NCBI GenBank assembly: GCA_028819475.1
Contig: JAPPLJ010000039.1
Location: 1 to 64,000 of the forward strand
DNA length: 64,000 bases
Source of the DNA: Rhodospirillaceae bacterium
GTDB taxonomy: Bacteria; Pseudomonadota; Alphaproteobacteria; Bin65
Direction of reading: 5' to 3'
The position numbers were made by a program, and so were the translations under genes. Each line of letters begins with the position of its first letter. Position 1 is the stretch's first letter. This document shows positions 27,667 to 50,523 of this stretch, in pieces. Under the pieces are notes generated by a model. It was not told the DNA's origin. It worked only from the letters and a program-made list of their open reading frames with translations, and did not search any database.

Positions 27667-27674
27667 TAATCATG
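27667..27674 (+). repeat. Target-site duplication, left copy (TAATCATG)
   Basis: Eight bases TAATCATG immediately before the left end of the element are repeated exactly at 31840-31847 after its right end. An 8-bp duplication is typical for IS1595-family transposition. Confidence 0.95.
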
Positions 27675-27697
27675 GGGAATTATATACGAAAGTCACT
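27675..27697 (+). repeat. Left terminal inverted repeat, element 1
   Basis: It starts GGGAATTATATACGA and matches the reverse complement of 31817-31839 at 22 of 23 positions; the mismatch is at base 16. Confidence 0.93.
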
Positions 27698-27753
27698 AGC
27701 CGCTTGACGCGCTAGATGTGGCGACTATCTCTGCCCCAGCCCCAAAATGCGTG

Positions 27754-27779
27754 ACGCCGCGCTTGCCAGAGCGCGGCGT
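27754..27779. other. GC-rich hairpin near left end of element 1
   Basis: ACGCCGCGCT and AGCGCGGCGT form a perfect 10-bp stem with a 6-nt loop. A TTTT follows eight bases later on the reverse strand. It could end reverse-strand transcripts leaving the element, or block forward transcripts entering from the amidase promoter. Confidence 0.5.
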
Positions 27780-27899
27780 TCACAGTGGGGTCAGTCCTGC
27801 ATGAAACAGGGCGAAACTTGATGGATCAATCGCACCGGGGAAATAGGACGATTCCCCTGAACCGTCAAGTGCGCCCTCCGCATGAAGGAGGTGACCGCA

Positions 27900-28226
27900 A
27901 TGACGGTGACTCAACAGCCCGAACCTGTCCGCCTTTCCGCCCGCACCTCTATCACCGGACTCGGCGGCACCGCTGCACTTGCCGAAGCTGTCCGCGCCGC
28001 GCGACGGGATCGGCAGGCGATACTGGAAGCCGGGCGGCGCGCCTTGGAGGGACAGCGCAAGCTGACAGCCGAGGCGAAGCGCGCTGTAGCGGCAGCGACC
28101 TACGAAATGGCGCGGTTCCCGCAAGAGATGGTCCGCGTCCCGGCCAAGCCGAAAGCCGCGCCGGAACCGGAATCGCAGAAGGAATTTCGGGAGCGGATGG
28201 CCGAACGCCATCTGTGGTACGTCTAG
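27900..28226 (+). CDS. Hypothetical protein, element 1 cargo
   Basis: 108 aa, mostly helical and Ala/Arg/Glu-rich (AALAEAVRAARRDRQAILEAGRRALEGQRKLTAEAKRAV), ending EFRERMAERHLWYV. The start is firm: AAGGAGGTG lies six bases before ATG 27900, although the frame is open to an earlier ATG at 27882. No domain recognised. It is a forward-strand gene inside the mobile element, opposite in direction to the transposase operon. A regulatory or accessory role is possible but unsupported. Confidence 0.6.
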   Translation: MTVTQQPEPVRLSARTSITGLGGTAALAEAVRAARRDRQAILEAGRRALEGQRKLTAEAKRAVAAATYEMARFPQEMVRVPAKPKAAPEPESQKEFRERMAERHLWYV

Positions 28227-28362
28227 GCGTCCGGGTCCAGCACCGGGCTGCGCTGGCCTCCGAACTCGCGCAGTCCGCAGGGGCGGCGGCTTCGCTGAAA
28301 TGGCCGCCGCCCCGACCCGACGGCCGGGCGATTGACCCGCCAATCTCGCCGCCCTAGAACGC

Positions 28363-28398
28363 CAACGCCCCCAAGGATGGGAGTCCCCAGGGGCGTTG
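28363..28398. other. Stem-loop between forward cargo genes of element 1
   Basis: CAACGCCCC pairs with GGGGCGTTG (9 bp) around an 18-nt loop, between the 108-aa and 95-aa forward genes. There is no U-run. It may be an attenuator-like or processing structure. Confidence 0.4.
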
Positions 28399-28499
28399 TG
28401 GAAACCTTGCGAGCCGAGGCCGGCCGCGCCCCGTCTATGCTCCATGTAGCGTAAGACGCGCCGCGCCGTCAACGGCCCGCCAAGCATGGAGAGTCAGCC

Positions 28500-28787
28500 G
28501 TGAAGACAGTGCCTAATCCCCTCGATTCGCGTAACTTGCCTGAATCCGACGATTCAGGTCATCCCATTCGTCCTGTGTCGGCCTTGGAAGCGGAACTGGA
28601 CGCAGAGGGCGAAATGATCGTCGTGCAATTCCTTGACCCCGGGAATGAGTGGCCATTTCCGTTTGCTCTGTCTCCGCCGGCGGCGAAGCAGCTTGCAGAA
28701 CTTCTTGAGCAGGCGGTTGAGGATTATCTGCATCCGACTCCGCAGCGTCAGCCCTCACCGGCTCCGATGGTTGGACGAAGGGTATAA
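28500..28787 (+). CDS. Hypothetical protein, element 1 cargo
   Basis: 95 aa starting at GTG 28500 with GGAG about ten bases upstream. The central segment EGEMIVVQFLDPGNEWPFPFALSPPAAKQLAELLEQAVED alternates strand and helix and reads like a small globular domain. A reverse-strand frame (28513-28803, MTSAEIIPF start with a GGGAG box) covers the same bases and is also plausible. The forward call is preferred because a forward-oriented terminator follows at 28869. Function unknown. Confidence 0.45.
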   Translation: MKTVPNPLDSRNLPESDDSGHPIRPVSALEAELDAEGEMIVVQFLDPGNEWPFPFALSPPAAKQLAELLEQAVEDYLHPTPQRQPSPAPMVGRRV

Positions 28788-28868
28788 TCTCGGCGCTGGT
28801 CATGTCGCACACTCCCTGCTAGAAGGGTTGCGCGTGGATTCTCCTCCCTGAGATAACGCATCGTCTTC

Positions 28869-28905
28869 GCCCCGTGCCGGTCCCGCAACCGCACGGGGCT
28901 TTTCT
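28869..28905 (+). terminator. Terminator between convergent units of element 1
   Basis: GCCCCGTGCCGGT and ACCGCACGGGGC form a long stem with one bulged base and a 6-nt loop, followed on the forward strand by TTTTCTGTC. It lies six bases beyond the end of the reverse-strand operon (28907) and 81 bp after the forward gene, so it can serve both directions. Confidence 0.8.
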
Positions 28906-28906
28906 G

Positions 28907-29128
28907 TCAGGCGTCCTTGTCCGTCACGATCCGCACGGGCCGCAGGATCGCCGCCGCTAGTTCGTCCGGCGTTGCGTCGATCCTGACAGGCTCTTCCAGT
29001 TCCGCCTTTGTCGGATAGATCGAGGCCGGGCGCAACCGCACCGTGCGCGGCTCCGGCAGTTCGACCGGCGGCGGGATCGGCGGTTTCTTGCGCTTCGGTT
29101 TCGGCTTGCGCTTCCGCTTTGCGGTCAT
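28907..29128 (-). CDS. Small basic protein coupled to the methyltransferase-HNH gene
   Basis: 73 aa. The first 16 residues are mostly Lys/Arg (MTAKRKRKPKPKRKK), followed by a Pro-rich linker and an acidic-helical end (KAELEEPVRIDATPDELAAAILRP). Its ATG at 29128 overlaps the TGA of the methyltransferase gene as ATGA, so it is translated as the last cistron of the transposase operon. The basic head suggests nucleic-acid binding. No known family was recognised. Confidence 0.65.
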   Translation of the reverse strand: MTAKRKRKPKPKRKKPPIPPPVELPEPRTVRLRPASIYPTKAELEEPVRIDATPDELAAAILRPVRIVTDKDA

Positions 29129-30357
29129 GTCCTGATTCCTTCCGCCTTGAGTCTGGCGACAAATTCCTCCTGCGAGCGCGCGCCCTTCATGGAGTTGCAC
29201 GCCGCACACAGCAGTTGGAGATTGTCGAAGTTGTCCTGCCCGCCCTTGGCCCGCGGCACGACGTGATCCACCGTCATGTTGCGGAACGGGAACAGCACGC
29301 GGCAGCCCGCGCAGATGCCTTCCTGCCGCCCGAACAGCGTGTGCTTGTGCGTTCGATAGTTCGGCAGGTCGCCGAGGTCCGTCCGGGCCGGCACGTCTTC
29401 CCGATGGTGCACGTCGTCGAACAGCGGGCCTCTGTCGTCCCGGAGGCGCTTCAGGACCAGCCGGGCCGCCAGCGGCGACAGGTCGATCCCGGCCCATTCC
29501 CGGTCGAGCCTGTCGGCGGCTACCAGCGCCGTAGCGCAGCCGCAAAACGGGTCAAGCACCATGTCGCCCGGATTGGAGCTGGCCCGAATGATCCGGTCGA
29601 GTAGCACCAGCGGTTTCTGCGTCGGATAGCCGACGCGCTCGGCAGACGGGCCGACGATTTGCTTGATCTCCCAAACATCCCGCATGGGAACGCCCTTCGA
29701 TTTTTCGCCAGTCGCGCGAATGCGTTTTTTCCCGGTTTCCTCATCGTGAAATGTCACGATCTTCTTGCCGCCCTTGATCCTCTTGAGCGTTTCATCGCTC
29801 AACGGGTCGAATAGCTGGTTCCAAATGACATCATCGCCCTTCGCGTATCGCAGAACGATGTCATGCATCCGCTGAAAATTCTTCTGTTTGGAAGGCCAAC
29901 GTCTGTAGAACCAAACGATCTCGTTCCTGAACCGCCCCCCCCCGAAGATCGAGTCCATCAGCATCTTGAGATAGTGGGACGCCGTGGGGTCGCAGTGCAG
30001 ATAGATGCTGCCCGTCTCCTTCAGCAGCCGCTTCATTTCCAGCAACCGCACCGCCATCATGATCAGGTAGGACTTCATGCCCTTGCCGTGCGCGACGCCG
30101 GCGGCGTCAATGATGGCGTACAGCGCGGGCGCCCGGTCGGCTATCTCGCCGTGCCAGGCTTGGTCAACGTCCGAAAGCGTCCAGGTATCCTTGAACGCCG
30201 CCCCGGCGGCTTCCGAGCCTATCGGCGCGGCATAGTCCCGGTTGCTGTTGAACGGCGGATCGAGGTACAGCAGGTCCACCGACTCGCTGTTCATCCCTCG
30301 CATTATATCGAGGTTATCGCCGGTCCAGAGCGTCCGGTTGCGCCAGTTGGCGGGCAT
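29125..30357 (-). CDS. DNA methyltransferase fused to C-terminal HNH nuclease
   Basis: 410 aa. The N-terminal part is an amino-DNA methyltransferase (N4-C or N6-A, beta-class order). The catalytic motif DPPF (residues 33-36, in YLDPPFNSNRDY) comes first and the AdoMet-binding motif DPFCGCATAL (269-278) last, with GYPTQKP before it and HCDPTASHYLK at 121-131. From about residue 335 an HNH domain follows: Cys349 and Cys352, DHVVPRAKGG (364-373), and LLCAACNSMKG with Cys384 and Cys387. Both activities thus sit on one chain, encoded inside an IS1595-family element behind the transposase. ATG 30357 is one base after the preceding stop. Recognition sequence unknown. Confidence 0.9.
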   Translation of the reverse strand: MPANWRNRTLWTGDNLDIMRGMNSESVDLLYLDPPFNSNRDYAAPIGSEAAGAAFKDTWTLSDVDQAWHGEIADRAPALYAIIDAAGVAHGKGMKSYLIMMAVRLLEMKRLLKETGSIYLHCDPTASHYLKMLMDSIFGGGRFRNEIVWFYRRWPSKQKNFQRMHDIVLRYAKGDDVIWNQLFDPLSDETLKRIKGGKKIVTFHDEETGKKRIRATGEKSKGVPMRDVWEIKQIVGPSAERVGYPTQKPLVLLDRIIRASSNPGDMVLDPFCGCATALVAADRLDREWAGIDLSPLAARLVLKRLRDDRGPLFDDVHHREDVPARTDLGDLPNYRTHKHTLFGRQEGICAGCRVLFPFRNMTVDHVVPRAKGGQDNFDNLQLLCAACNSMKGARSQEEFVARLKAEGIRT

Positions 30358-30358
30358 A

Positions 30359-30784
30359 TCAGGACTCGAACAGAAACTCGCCGAGGATCAACTCGCTGAC
30401 GCGCCAGACGGGGAGAGGCTTGCCGTCGATCTTGAGGTCGCACGCCTGCGTTTCCGGGTTCCAGTCCGGGACGATCTCAACATGCGCCTTGTCGGCCCGG
30501 CAGGCGGTGATTGTGGCGTCGTCGCGCCGCACCCGGATAACATCGCCGATATAGTCCTCGTCCTCGACGACGTAGTGCCCGCCGGTATTCACCGGTGACT
30601 CGACCATTCGCCGGATGACCAGCTCGCCGTTCTCGAGATCGGCCTTGAACTGGCGCTTGCCCCGCTTGTCCGAAGATAAGCCGTTGTAGGACCGGATATC
30701 CTTTTTCAGCCGCTTCACCAGTTCGGTCATGTTGTCAGCGGGCGTGCAGTTGGCTCGCGCGACCACCCAATTCTGGGCGCTCAT
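30359..30784 (-). CDS. Hypothetical protein between transposase and methyltransferase
   Basis: 141 aa, no recognised family. A helical start (MTELVKRLKKDIRSYNGLSSDKRGKRQF) is followed by beta-rich sequence (GELVIRRMVESPVNTGGHYVVEDEDYIGDVIRVRRDDATITACRADKAHVEIV). Its ATG overlaps the transposase stop in an ATGA at 30781-30784, and its own stop is one base before the methyltransferase start. Translation of the three proteins is therefore linked. It might be a partner or control subunit of the methyltransferase-nuclease, a guess from position alone. Confidence 0.7.
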   Translation of the reverse strand: MSAQNWVVARANCTPADNMTELVKRLKKDIRSYNGLSSDKRGKRQFKADLENGELVIRRMVESPVNTGGHYVVEDEDYIGDVIRVRRDDATITACRADKAHVEIVPDWNPETQACDLKIDGKPLPVWRVSELILGEFLFES

Positions 30785-31755
30785 GACCGGGCCCCCGATC
30801 CCAGCCCGTTATCGGCGATCAGTTCGCGATACCGGAGCCTTTTGCCGACCCCGCCCGCGGCGATCGCCGACATCATGTCGATTGTGTCGAGATCGCGCAG
30901 ATTGTGGCGGGTCGCGAACTCTCCGACGTACCGGGGCAGGTGCTTGGGCGAAAAGTGGTGGAACACGCCGTCATGGCTGCGGCTGATCGTGGCCCAGAAG
31001 GATTCCAGCCCATTCGTGCTCGCCATGCCCTTGACGTATTCCCCGGCACTGTGGCGGACGGTTTCGTGCGTCCGGTTCGGCAGCCCGCGATAGGCGACCG
31101 CCTCATCCGTGTAGACAGTCGAGCCTTCCGCCGTGTGCTCGGTCACGAAGCGGTGCAGCGTCTCCCGCGTCGTGTCGGGAACGACCTGCGCTTTGACCTT
31201 GCCCGTGGCCCGGTCCCGCAGCCCGGCGACCGGAACCTTCCCGACCGTGCCGCGGCCTGCGTTCAGCTTCTTGGCGGCGTGCTTGTTGCCTTCCTTGCCG
31301 CCGGCATAGAATTCATCCGCCTCGGTCGGCCCGGCGAACAGCGGCTTGCCGCTTTCCATGGCCTTGCGCAGCCGGTGCGACAGGAACCACGCTGATTTCT
31401 GCGTGATTTCCAGATCCCGATGCAGCTTCATGCTCGATACGCCTTTCAGGTTCACCGTGACCAGATAGACGGCGATGGCCCAAGTCTGAAAGCCGAGCTT
31501 CGACCCTTCCATGATGTTGCCCGTCTTGAGCGAAAACATCGGCTGGCCTTTGCAGTCCCGGCAACGGTGCGTCATCGTCTTGTGCTTGATGTTCGACTGC
31601 ACGTTGAACGATCCACAGCGCGGGCAGTACGGGCCTTGCGGCCAGAGCTTCGACTCGAACCACTTGCGGGCCGCGTCGTCGTTCGGGAACATGCCGATCA
31701 GCTTCTTGAGGCTGATGCCTTCGCGATGATGCTTGCCGGGTGCGTTGTGAGCCAT
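30781..31755 (-). CDS. IS1595-family (ISXO2-like) transposase
   Basis: 324 aa. N-terminal zinc ribbon with Cys44/Cys47 (CPRCGS) and Cys65/Cys68 (CRDC). DDE-type catalytic core with Asp147 in TEADEFYAGG, Asp217 in TVYTDEAVAY and Glu251 in NGLESFWA. This is the ISXO2-like layout. It is intact and preceded by a consensus-like promoter in the right end of the element and a GAGGGAC box, so the element may still be mobile. The stop overlaps the start of the 141-aa gene. Confidence 0.95.
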   Translation of the reverse strand: MAHNAPGKHHREGISLKKLIGMFPNDDAARKWFESKLWPQGPYCPRCGSFNVQSNIKHKTMTHRCRDCKGQPMFSLKTGNIMEGSKLGFQTWAIAVYLVTVNLKGVSSMKLHRDLEITQKSAWFLSHRLRKAMESGKPLFAGPTEADEFYAGGKEGNKHAAKKLNAGRGTVGKVPVAGLRDRATGKVKAQVVPDTTRETLHRFVTEHTAEGSTVYTDEAVAYRGLPNRTHETVRHSAGEYVKGMASTNGLESFWATISRSHDGVFHHFSPKHLPRYVGEFATRHNLRDLDTIDMMSAIAAGGVGKRLRYRELIADNGLGSGARS

Positions 31756-31784
31756 TGTCCGTCCCTCTGTTTCGTGATTATAAT
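31755..31784 (+). promoter_or_regulatory. Outward-facing promoter candidate, right end of element 1
   Basis: TTGTCC (31755-31760) and a perfect TATAAT (31779-31784) are 18 bp apart on the forward strand and point out of the element toward the amidase 3' fragment and the ABC transport genes. It overlaps the inward transposase promoter on the other strand. Confidence 0.5.
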
Positions 31785-31796
31785 ATAGGGACGGAC
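31757..31796. promoter_or_regulatory. Inverted repeat covering the transposase ribosome-binding site
   Basis: GTCCGTCCC (31757-31765) and GGGACGGAC (31788-31796) are perfect 9-bp inverted arms. On the reverse strand the distal arm lies in the promoter spacer and the proximal arm contains the GGGAC of the transposase ribosome-binding site. The hairpin would form only in transcripts begun outside the element. It could alternatively be a repressor operator. Confidence 0.6.
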
Positions 31797-31810
31797 GGCG
31801 GCATGTTCAA
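31782..31810 (-). promoter_or_regulatory. Transposase operon promoter, element 1
   Basis: On the reverse strand TTGAAC (31810-31805) and TATATT (31787-31782) are separated by 17 bp, close to the sigma-70 consensus, 27 bp before the transposase start. The CCCTATATT string is shared with the corresponding site of element 2. Confidence 0.65.
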
Positions 31811-31816
31811 GGAAAA

Positions 31817-31839
31817 AGTGACTGTCGTATATAATTCCC
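31817..31839 (-). repeat. Right terminal inverted repeat, element 1
   Basis: It is the reverse complement of the left repeat at 22 of 23 positions and ends ATAATTCCC at the junction with the duplicated TAATCATG. Confidence 0.93.
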
Positions 31840-31847
31840 TAATCATG
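31840..31847 (+). repeat. Target-site duplication, right copy (TAATCATG)
   Basis: Identical to 27667-27674. Its last three bases are the Met codon at which the amidase frame resumes. Confidence 0.95.
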
Positions 31848-47867: not shown

Positions 47868-47889
47868 CGGAATAAGTAGATAGGGGCTT
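47868..47889 (+). repeat. Left terminal inverted repeat, element 2
   Basis: Starts CGGAATAAGTAGATAGGG and is identical to the reverse complement of 50502-50523 over 22 bp. Confidence 0.93.
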
Positions 47890-47915
47890 GAAATATCCCC
47901 GTCAATCCCTATATT
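47888..47915 (+). promoter_or_regulatory. Transposase promoter, element 2
   Basis: TTGAAA (47888-47893) and TATATT (47910-47915) are 16 bp apart, the first box overlapping the inner end of the terminal repeat. The CCCTATATT string matches the promoter of element 1. TCCCT just ahead of the -10 box can pair with AGGGA of the ribosome-binding site at 47923-47927. Confidence 0.6.
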
Positions 47916-47936
47916 CAGAGTACAGGGAGAGACGCC

Positions 47937-48815
47937 ATGAACCTCATCACCATCTTCCAACGCTACCCGGATCAGGAAGCTTGCATTGAGCATATGGAGC
48001 GCGTGCGCTGGGGCGACGAAGCCCATTGCCCGCACTGCGGTTCCGTCAAGGTCGCCCGCAAGGCGGAGCGGTACAGGGTAGGCCGCTGGAATTGCCACGA
48101 TTGCAAGGCCAGCTTCAACGTCCTGTCCGGGACCATCTTCGAAAAGACGAAAATCCCGCTGCAAAAGTGGTTCATGGCTATCGGGATCATGGTCAACGCC
48201 AAAAAGAGCGTTTCCAGTTTCCAGTTGTCCCGCGATCTCGACATGAACCAAAAATCGGCATGGTACATGCAACAGCGTATCCGGGCCGCGATGGCCGCGG
48301 ATCAAGGCCCGCTGCTTCAAGGGATTGTCGAGGCGGATGAAACCTACGTCGGCGGCAAGCCCCGGAAGCCGAACCGCCGCGACGACGACGGGCCGGGCAA
48401 GCCGCGCGGTCGCGGAACATCCAAGACTCCGGTTGTCGGCGCTGTAGAGCGCGGCGGCCGGGCCGTTGCCCGCATTGCCGATGGGCTGGACGGCAAAAGC
48501 CTTCTGCGGTTCCTGAAACAGAATGTCGATCCGGTCGGAACGCTCCTGATTACCGACGAATGGAAGGGCTACAAGCCGGTCCGTAAAGCCTACCAGCACG
48601 CCGTTATCAAGCACTCCGAAGCCTACGCCGACGGCGACACGCACACGAACACCATTGAAGGCGTTTGGGCGCTCCTGAAGCGGGCGCGGTACGGGCAGCA
48701 CCATCATTACACCCGCCACTGGATGCCTCTGTTCATTGCCGAAGCGGTCTGGAAATACAATCACCGAAAGACGGACAGGGGCTTCGATATGTTCATGCGG
48801 AGTTGCTTCGCATGA
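47937..48815 (+). CDS. IS1595-family (ISXO2-like) transposase
   Basis: 292 aa. Zinc ribbon with Cys31/Cys34 (CPHCGS) and Cys53/Cys56 (CHDC). Catalytic triad positions are Asp134 in VEADETYVGG, Asp207 in LLITDEWKGY and Glu241 in TNTIEGVWALLKR. It is closer to the common ISXO2 form than the transposase of element 1. Intact, with AGGGAGA about nine bases before ATG 47937. TGA overlaps the methyltransferase start. Confidence 0.95.
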   Translation: MNLITIFQRYPDQEACIEHMERVRWGDEAHCPHCGSVKVARKAERYRVGRWNCHDCKASFNVLSGTIFEKTKIPLQKWFMAIGIMVNAKKSVSSFQLSRDLDMNQKSAWYMQQRIRAAMAADQGPLLQGIVEADETYVGGKPRKPNRRDDDGPGKPRGRGTSKTPVVGAVERGGRAVARIADGLDGKSLLRFLKQNVDPVGTLLITDEWKGYKPVRKAYQHAVIKHSEAYADGDTHTNTIEGVWALLKRARYGQHHHYTRHWMPLFIAEAVWKYNHRKTDRGFDMFMRSCFA

Positions 48816-50497
48816 ACCGCCTCTATTACGGCGACTGCCTCACCGTCATGCAGGAAATGTCGCTCGGCAGTGTGGATCTGATCTATCTCGATCCGCCGTT
48901 CCAATCGAACCGCGATTACAACGCCATCTATCAGGACGAAACCGGCCGTCCTCTGCCCGATCAAATCGAAGCGTTTTGCGATACATGGACTCTGGATGCA
49001 GACCGGGAGCGCGCCATCCGCGCCATGCCGGTGCTGATGCGCGAACATGGGATCGAAGACGAAATCGCGGAGTTCTGGCGCTTGTGGATGAACGCGCTAC
49101 GCAAGACGAACCCGCGGCTTCTGGCGTATCTGTCCTACATGGTGCAGCGGCTATTACCCATGCGCGGCCTGTTGAAGCCGACCGGAAGCCTGTACCTTCA
49201 CTGCGATCCGACCGCCAGTCACTACATCAAAGTGATGCTTGACGGGCTGTTCGGGCATGAGAATTTTCGGAATGAAATTGTCTGGCGGCGCACCGGCGCG
49301 CATGGCCGCGCGAAAAGATGGGGACCAATTCACGATACGCTTTTGTTTTACAGCCGAGGAAAAAAGTACACATGGAATCGCGTTTTTGAAGCCTATGATC
49401 CCGAATACATTGAGAACTTTTACCGCTTCAAAGATGACCATGACCGCTATCGTCTTGTGACGCTTGATGGCCCTGGGACCAGGAAAGGCGATTCCGGGCA
49501 ACCGTGGCGAGGGGTAAATCCGACCGATAAGGGGCGGCATTGGGAATTGCCGCCGGATCGCGCATTGCCAGACTGGTTCGATTTTCCCGAAGGCTATTCC
49601 GGCATGACAATTCAAGAGCGTCTTGATGTTCTTGATGCAGCCGGCCTGATTTACTGGCCGCCGCGTGGGTCCGTTCCGCAGTACAAACGCTATCTGTCCG
49701 TGTCTGCGGGCAACCCGGTTCAAGATATTGTCTCGGATATTAGGCCCATAGGATCGCAGGCCAAAGAGCGGCTCGGCTACAACACACAAAAGCCGATAGA
49801 ACTTCTAGAGCGGATCATCGCGGCCAGCTCGAATCCCGGCGACGTGGTATTCGATCCGTTCTGCGGGTGCGCCACGACGCTTGAAGCGGCGCACCGCCTC
49901 GGCCGGCGCTGGATCGGAATCGACATTGCCATTCACGCCATAAAGCGCGTGGCCAAAATACGGCTGGAAGAGCGGTTGAAGCTGGTCGAGGGAACCGACT
50001 TCACGATTGACGGTGTCCCGCGCAACCTCGAAGGCGCGCGCGACCTGTGGACCCGCGACAAGTACCATTTCCAGAAATGGGCAGTCGAGGAAGTGGACGG
50101 CTTCGTTACGACCCGCCGCGGCAGCGACGGCGGTATCGACGGGCGGCTCTACTTCGCCATGCCGCAGACCAGCCCCACGGCGCGCGATCCGCTCCGCTCA
50201 ATGGTGATTGAAGTGAAAGGCGGCAAGAACGTCGGTATCGGCGTTGTGCGCGACCTGCGCGGCGTCCTGGAGCGTGAGGAAGCCGAGATGGCAGGGCTGA
50301 TAGTCATGGACGATCCCGGCCCGCGCAAGCGCGCCAATTTCGAGCGGGAGATGGCCGCGGCTGGCGATCTCGACGTGTTCGGAACGCTCTATCCCCGGAT
50401 GCAGCTTTTGACGGTCGAGGAAATTATCGGCGGCGCACGCTTCAACACGCCGGGAGCGGTCGGAAAAGGTGCTGGACAAGCCGCCCTTGCTGTGTGA
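48812..50497 (+). CDS. DNA methyltransferase fused to PD-(D/E)XK (Mrr-like) nuclease
   Basis: 561 aa. The methyltransferase part has catalytic DPPF at 27-30 (YLDPPFQSNRDYN), HCDPTASHYIK at 130-140, YNTQKP, and the AdoMet motif DPFCGCATT at 348-356: an amino-methyltransferase of the same beta-type as that of element 1. From about residue 410 there is a separate domain: KYHFQKWAVEEVDGF, then SDGGIDGRLYF with Asp443, and MVIEVKGGKN with Glu467 and Lys469. This is the D-x(n)-E-x-K core of an Mrr-like restriction nuclease. Methylation and cleavage would reside in one polypeptide, carried by an insertion sequence and coupled to its transposase by ATGA at 48812. Confidence 0.9.
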   Translation: MNRLYYGDCLTVMQEMSLGSVDLIYLDPPFQSNRDYNAIYQDETGRPLPDQIEAFCDTWTLDADRERAIRAMPVLMREHGIEDEIAEFWRLWMNALRKTNPRLLAYLSYMVQRLLPMRGLLKPTGSLYLHCDPTASHYIKVMLDGLFGHENFRNEIVWRRTGAHGRAKRWGPIHDTLLFYSRGKKYTWNRVFEAYDPEYIENFYRFKDDHDRYRLVTLDGPGTRKGDSGQPWRGVNPTDKGRHWELPPDRALPDWFDFPEGYSGMTIQERLDVLDAAGLIYWPPRGSVPQYKRYLSVSAGNPVQDIVSDIRPIGSQAKERLGYNTQKPIELLERIIAASSNPGDVVFDPFCGCATTLEAAHRLGRRWIGIDIAIHAIKRVAKIRLEERLKLVEGTDFTIDGVPRNLEGARDLWTRDKYHFQKWAVEEVDGFVTTRRGSDGGIDGRLYFAMPQTSPTARDPLRSMVIEVKGGKNVGIGVVRDLRGVLEREEAEMAGLIVMDDPGPRKRANFEREMAAAGDLDVFGTLYPRMQLLTVEEIIGGARFNTPGAVGKGAGQAALAV

Positions 50498-50501
50498 TAT
50501 T

Positions 50502-50523
50502 AAGCCCCTATCTACTTATTCCG
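50502..50523 (-). repeat. Right terminal inverted repeat, element 2
   Basis: Exact inverted copy of 47868-47889, ending CTTATTCCG before the duplicated ATTTTTTT at 50524-50531. Confidence 0.93.

What the first reader, a model, noticed from the sequence alone, without database searches (positions are those of the whole stretch)
31757..31796. Hairpin that would hide the transposase ribosome-binding site in outside-started transcripts
GTCCGTCCC in the promoter spacer pairs with GGGACGGAC over the transposase ribosome-binding site. A transcript from the element's own promoter starts between the arms and lacks the first one. Read-through RNA from outside has both and would mask translation. This is the logic known from IS10 and IS50. 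Element 2 has a weaker counterpart (TCCCT at 47906-47910 and AGGGA at 47923-47927) around the same CCCTATATT promoter core.
Basis: partly seen in the sequence, partly recalled or inferred. Interest (0 to 1): 0.6.

Follow-up and report, generated by a model that had tools for sequence, protein, structure and literature searches.

The report
Hairpin silencing read-through transposase RNA
A jumping gene in this bacterial genome seems to carry a built-in RNA hairpin that would hide the start of its transposase gene whenever RNA enters from neighbouring DNA but not when it starts at the element's own promoter, and many related elements carry the same device in different sequences.

Summary
The hairpin is real and where stated: GTCCGTCCCT (31796-31787) pairs with AGGGACGGAC (31766-31757), minus strand, across the predicted transcription start (31775) of an IS1595-family transposase gene. 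Predicted cost of opening the ribosome-binding region is 2.9 kcal/mol in the element's own transcript and 21.0 in read-through RNA, the largest rise of 85 elements. In relatives each promoter pairs with its own leader better than with other elements' leaders: z 10.9, n=85; z 5.6 in 36 held-out elements; not significant in 31 from viral contigs (z 1.1). DNA outside the promoter does not pair (z 0.0, 0.3), nor do ordinary genes. Arms differ in sequence and register, even beside a 94%-identical transposase. Element 2's pairing is within chance and adds about 1 kcal/mol. A strand test (G.U against A.C) was uninformative. Best reading: read-through silencing as recalled for IS10/IS50, a new case in another family, without expression data. 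In set 1, 39% show a clear helix against 12% by chance.

The parts
27675..31839 (-). Element 1 (E1), complete IS1595-family element with passenger genes, inserted in an amidase gene
   Evidence: 8-bp target duplication TAATCATG at 27667-27674 and 31840-31847; inverted ends GGGAATTATATACGA; amidase rest on the right flank
30781..31755 (-). E1 transposase gene, start codon ATG 31755-31753
   Evidence: PF12762 127.6 bits and PF12760; NF033547 IS1595 transposase 173.8 bits, cut-off 75
31787..31796 (-). arm 1, GTCCGTCCCT, in the promoter spacer; its last base is the first base of the -10
31757..31766 (-). arm 2, AGGGACGGAC, over the ribosome-binding site
31805..31810 (-). -35 box TTGAAC, at the inner edge of the terminal inverted repeat
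   Evidence: position by the weight matrix; the part CTTGA also occurs in the other end of E1
31782..31787 (-). -10 box TATATT, spacer 17
31775..31775 (-). predicted transcription start (7 nt after the -10), between the arms
   Evidence: inferred from the promoter; not mapped
47868..50523 (+). Element 2 (E2), complete IS1595-family element
   Evidence: inverted ends CGGAATAAGTAGATAGGGGCTT at 47868-47889 and 50502-50523, flanked by 8-bp ATTTTTTT
47937..48815 (+). E2 transposase gene
   Evidence: PF12762, PF12760; NF033547 180.4 bits
47900..47910 (+). E2 arm 1: CGTC-AA-TCCCT
   Evidence: folds with 47924-47934; within chance (382 of 5000)
47924..47934 (+). E2 arm 2: AGGGA-GA-GACG
   Evidence: predicted effect on access about 1 kcal/mol

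Best explanation
The hairpin is a read-through silencer. RNA made from the element's own inward promoter starts at about 31775, between the arms, so its ribosome-binding site is free. RNA that enters from neighbouring genes carries arm 1 as well, folds the 10-bp stem, and hides the ribosome-binding site, so the transposase is translated little or not at all from chance outside transcription. Many other IS1595-family elements carry the same arrangement with other arm sequences, arm lengths and loop lengths. Shown by computation: the stem, its place, and excess own-partner pairing in relatives, confined to the promoter-to-start stretch. Inferred: the start site, the folding in vivo, and lower translation.
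For: Stem and place. Opening cost of -15..+3: E1 2.9 to 21.0, foreign promoter halves 6.5; all set-1 elements 4.89 to 10.76 against 7.95 foreign, read-through above foreign in 68 of 85, p 1.4e-9; held-out genomes 27 of 36, p 6.6e-6. Own against swapped partner: n=85 z 10.9, 0 of 2000; held-out n=36 z 5.6, 0 of 2000; own-genome copies n=9 z 4.5, 0 of 5000, and without the window's genus n=67 z 8.8. Outside-of-promoter control z 0.0 and 0.3. Ordinary genes z 0.7, -1.5, 1.3. Arm 1 excess runs from 15 nt before the -10 to the start site, none at or outside the -35. Promoters are convincing: with a flat spacing prior 58% score at least 20 against 4.3% of shuffles, spacing 17 in 47 of 72. Compensating changes in a 7-sequence subgroup: 12 double-sided cells, 0 of 500 shuffles (small, related set, alignment imperfect).
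Against: 31 elements from viral contigs: z 1.1, 299 of 2000, opening cost p 0.24. E2 and several own-genome copies show little (L003 3.7 to 4.9, L012 6.2 to 5.8, L006 4.3 to 7.2; L002 rises 1.2 to 7.8, but foreign halves give 9.0). Only 39% of set 1 have a clear helix against 12% by chance. The promoter-by-coding control was also above chance in set 1 (z 4.3) and near it in viral contigs (z 2.0), though not in held-out genomes (z 0.8). G.U is not favoured over A.C, so RNA rather than DNA symmetry is not shown directly. At E1's present site the neighbouring genes run the other way, so read-through into the transposase there is not obvious. No expression data.
Confidence: 0.7

Rival explanations
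1. The inverted repeat is a DNA palindrome, an operator for the transposase or a host repressor that overlaps the promoter; pairing in RNA is a by-product.
For: It overlaps the -10 and the spacer. A.C mismatches occur about as often as G.U inside the helices, as a DNA-level symmetry would allow.
Against: Arms differ between E1 and the C27 copy, whose transposase is 94% identical. Loops of helices scoring 20 or more run from 1 to over 40 nt (part of these helices are chance). Arm 2 excess peaks near the ribosome-binding site and start codon.
Confidence: 0.12
2. The RNA hairpin acts in the element's own transcript (true start upstream of arm 1), damping transposase translation constitutively or as a target of an antisense RNA or Hfq, as described for ISPpu9.
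For: ISPpu9 has such a 5' UTR fold (PMC8450116, abstract and passages). The fold forms in any RNA that contains both arms.
Against: A consensus-like promoter puts the start between the arms in E1 and in most relatives. Excess arm 1 pairing stops at the promoter and is absent outside it.
Confidence: 0.1
3. Chance: a C-rich stretch before the -10 (CCCTATATT) meets a purine-rich ribosome-binding site (AGGGA).
For: It is enough for E2: 382 of 5000 shuffles as good, rank 0.15 among partners.
Against: Swapped partners have the same kinds of motif and still score lower. E1 is 23 of 5000.
Confidence: 0.06

Closest known systems
IS10 (IS4 family) transposase RNA-IN, read-through protection
   Same: Inward promoter near the end, start between arms, outside RNA would mask the ribosome-binding site (the read-through part is recalled; passages of PMC5006887, describe pIN, RNA-IN and ribosome-binding-site control but not this hairpin)
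   Different: E1 is IS1595 family (NF033547, PF12762). An antisense RNA like RNA-OUT was not tested. No GATC in 31753-31839 (read).
IS50/Tn5 transposase (T1) read-through control
   Same: Same logic, recalled; passages of PMC4265352 name the T1 promoter and Shine-Dalgarno but not the hairpin
   Different: Different transposase family; an inhibitor transcript was not looked for here
IS200 (IS200/IS605) 5' hairpins
   Same: A stem-loop occludes the ribosome-binding site and another stops impinging transcripts (stated in a passage of PMC3196728)
   Different: No terminator-like site here. In E1 the stem needs promoter DNA upstream of the predicted own start.
ISPpu9 (Pseudomonas putida) tnp 5' UTR
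   Same: 5' UTR fold hides the ribosome-binding site; weakening mutations raise expression (PMC8450116, passages)
   Different: There the fold is in the element's own long 5' UTR; here the predicted own leader is about 20 nt and open

Membership tests
IS1595 insertion-sequence family (E1 and E2) | IS1595 transposase (DDE domain with zinc ribbon) | tested here: met
   PF12762 and PF12760; NF033547 over cut-off for both
IS1595 insertion-sequence family (E1 and E2) | terminal inverted repeats and 8-bp target duplication (8 bp as a family trait is recalled) | tested here: met
   TAATCATG for E1, ATTTTTTT for E2
IS4 family, to which IS10 and IS50 belong | DDE_Tnp_1 (PF01609) transposase (assignment recalled) | tested here: not met
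   No PF01609 match to either transposase at E 0.001
Read-through-silenced transposase genes (works like IS10/IS50) | inward promoter inside the end, start between the arms | tested here: inconclusive
   Predicted in E1 and most relatives; start not mapped
Read-through-silenced transposase genes (works like IS10/IS50) | ribosome-binding site masked only in the longer RNA | tested here: met
   By computation only: E1 2.9 against 21.0 kcal/mol. For E2 not met: 8.8 against 9.8.
Read-through-silenced transposase genes (works like IS10/IS50) | read-through RNA is translated poorly | not testable with these tools
   needs reporter fusions
Read-through-silenced transposase genes (works like IS10/IS50) | Dam methylation site (GATC) in the promoter, as in IS10/IS50 (passages of PMC5006887 and PMC4265352) | tested here: not met
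   No GATC in 31753-31839, by reading; not required for the hairpin logic

The most novel reading that the evidence does not exclude
Selection against read-through translation shapes the core promoters of a large part of the IS1595 family: the spacer, -10 and discriminator serve at once as promoter DNA and as the RNA arm that masks the transposase start. The arm pair is repeatedly re-invented in new sequence and register. Because downstream passenger genes overlap the transposase stop codon (E1 30784, E2 48812), the same hairpin could also keep the passenger methyltransferases silent in read-through RNA.
Probability: 0.4. Interest if true: 0.65.

Novelty: new member of a known kind. Interest (0 to 1): 0.5.

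Why it matters
It would extend a classical safeguard, known to me mainly from IS10, IS50 and IS200, to a widespread transposon family, with strong comparative evidence that pairing and not sequence is kept. That gives a rule for finding such silencers: compare each element's promoter with its own leader against swapped leaders. It also offers a set of natural variants to measure how much read-through translation an element tolerates.

Tried and rejected
A fixed-window RNAduplex test gave a signal but impure controls, and fixed windows with a simple pairing score were weaker; both were replaced by a cut at the predicted start site. That cut, the thresholds and the score were settled after seeing set 1, so one search repeated them unchanged on loci not used before. 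The viral-contig half of that held-out set did not reach significance, and stricter promoters did not rescue it (z 1.3, n=15, post hoc).

G.U against A.C as a test of RNA versus DNA: no difference. Single mismatches inside helices: both types exceed swaps (G.U 17 against 5.5 expected and A.C 16 against 7.6 in the loosest setting). Inconclusive.

Column-by-column compensation between E1 and its closest copy was rejected: only 4 of 10 E1 pairs remain pairs in the aligned copy. The copy has ATCCTCTC/GAGAGGAT in another register.

Other transposase families as controls, 30 loci each: PF13610 n=28 z 1.8, PF01609 n=26 z 0.6. These are too few to say that the device is peculiar to IS1595. Ordinary genes under strict filters were too few (n=22); relaxed filters gave n=106, 58 and a random 150, all from 244 ORF starts. 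Transposases of the window were not removed from these ordinary sets.

Intrinsic terminator at the hairpin: none found. Rfam: no match in the window. Papers on IS1595 read-through hairpins: none seen in searches of the open-licence library (listings only, plus passages of five papers); the main subscription literature was not searchable.

Full report
What is there. The window lies in a 4.48-Mb, 72-contig assembly. The finding sits just inside one end of a complete IS1595-family element, E1 (27675-31839). It has inverted ends, an 8-bp target duplication (TAATCATG), a transposase on the minus strand and passenger genes, and it interrupts an amidase gene. A second complete element, E2 (47868-50523), is flanked by ATTTTTTT. 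The genome holds 11 places that match the IS1595 transposase domain.

The hairpin. On the minus strand E1 reads -35 TTGAAC, a 17-nt spacer, -10 TATATT, then a short leader and ATG. The last nine spacer bases plus the first base of the -10 (GTCCGTCCCT) are the exact complement of AGGGACGGAC, which covers the ribosome-binding site. The 40-mer folds at -16.9 kcal/mol (z -4.63; selected stretch), and the 121-nt region at z -2.08. The predicted start, 31775, lies between the arms. RNA that starts there has an open site (2.9 kcal/mol to open -15..+3); RNA from outside needs 21.0, and with promoter halves of other elements put in front of the E1 leader the mean is 6.5.

Relatives, first set. I gathered 172 loci plus the two window elements (redundant copies included), found 169 usable transposase starts with 135 distinct upstreams and 125 non-redundant ones. 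Of these, 85 had a promoter score of at least 14 and a ribosome-binding site of -5 kcal/mol or better; the other 40 were left out. The start codon was chosen by ribosome-binding strength, codon and position, never by pairing. Splitting each at its predicted start, the promoter half pairs with its own leader at a mean score of 17.18, against 13.75 with other elements' leaders (z 10.9, 0 of 2000 permutations); 39% reach 18 against 12%. The 38 nt outside the -35 do not (13.04 against 13.05, z 0.0). Promoter against coding sequence gives z 4.3. I put that down to arms that run into the start codon and codon 2, seen by eye in three elements (L131, L168, L043), but this is an interpretation.

Held-out set. 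With nothing changed, 80 loci from genome contigs gave 64 usable new upstreams, of which 36 passed the filters: own 18.00 against 15.05 (z 5.6, 0 of 2000; controls z 0.3 and 0.8). Eighty loci from viral contigs gave 67, of which 31 passed: z 1.1 (299 of 2000), not significant. So the property is strong in chromosomal IS1595 elements and not shown for viral-contig relatives.

Own genome. Nine copies with usable promoters give z 4.5 (0 of 5000), with six of nine at 18 or more against 12% by swap. The copy on contig 27 has a transposase 94% identical to E1's, yet only 4 of E1's 10 pairs survive in the aligned columns; it has an 8-bp pairing, ATCCTCTC/GAGAGGAT, in another register. Copies on C38 (GCAATC-CCC/GGGAGATTGC) and C50 (CATTCCG../..CGGAATG) pair differently again. 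By opening cost the picture is mixed: E1, C16 (5.2 to 16.6), C50 (7.7 to 15.5) and C36 (2.2 to 9.3) rise above foreign halves; C38 rises by about 3 (4.3 to 7.2, foreign 6.3); C27 rises (1.2 to 7.8) but not above foreign halves (9.0); C5, C65 and E2 hardly change.

Where the excess lies. In 121 elements (85 plus 36; the viral 31 left out) the excess coverage by arm 1 begins about 15 nt before the -10 and grows to the start site (ratios 1.9 to 5.3; 1.4 just before that), with ratios of 0.8 to 1.2 at and outside the -35. Arm 2 excess, among well-populated bins, is highest from -10 to -1 of the start codon. Loops run from 1 to over 40 nt. Perfect runs of 7 or more pairs occur in 22 of 121 against 4.7 expected; E1's run of 10 is the longest. 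The promoters are well supported: with no preference for spacing, 58% of 125 score 20 or more against 4.3% of shuffles, and 47 of those 72 have a 17-nt spacer. Ordinary genes from 461 kb of the same genome give z 0.7, -1.5 and 1.3.

Covariation. A small alignable subgroup of seven elements with long hairpins, picked because they have them, has 12 cells with changes on both sides (0 of 500 shuffles) and 79% paired cells, against 22 to 48% when slid. Two of the seven are out of register in that alignment.

What this does not show. Neither RNA folding in cells nor lower translation was measured. The strand test that could tell RNA from DNA symmetry failed to decide. The case for RNA rests on arms changing freely while pairing stays, on variable loops, and on arm 2 lying over the ribosome-binding site. 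E2, offered as a second example, is within chance (382 of 5000) and gains about 1 kcal/mol. In its present site E1 faces neighbours transcribed the other way, so the hairpin is best seen as a travelling property of the element and not as a response to this locus.

Comparison with the known. The same logic is recalled for IS10 and IS50. The held papers that I read in passages describe control of the IS10 and IS50 transposase RNAs by Hfq and antisense RNA, the IS200 stem-loops and the ISPpu9 5' UTR. In those passages none treats IS1595, and ten searches listed no such report. E1 is not a member of the IS10/IS50 family (no PF01609). It probably works like them.

Noticed in passing
29125-30784 and 48812-50494: Both elements carry a DNA methyltransferase passenger (N6_N4_Mtase). 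In E1 it is joined to an HNH domain and preceded by a 141-aa ORF with no family match. The first gene after each transposase overlaps its stop codon (30784; 48812), which suggests translational coupling.
   Followed up: partly
31755-31784 (+): A promoter-like site TTGTCC-18-TATAAT (10 of 12) faces outward from E1 towards the truncated amidase, overlapping the inward promoter.
   Followed up: no
27675-28900: The left part of E1 holds small ORFs (114 aa at 27882-28226; 95 aa at 28500-28787) without NCBIfam matches.
   Followed up: no
L047, L148, L149, L150: Some relatives have an additional long inverted repeat between the end and the -10 (for example CTAACTAGCCA..TGGCTAGTTA), separate from the start-site hairpin.
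   Followed up: no
L131, L168, L043: In some relatives arm 2 includes the start codon or the bases just before and after it (GGGCAT with ATGCCC, ATGTCC or a like stretch) and the ribosome-binding site lies in the loop.
   Followed up: partly
31805-31810 and 27675-27712: The -35 box lies at the inner edge of the terminal inverted repeat; CTTGA is present in both ends of E1 and GGCTT in both ends of E2, so transposase binding to its end might also repress its promoter.
   Followed up: no
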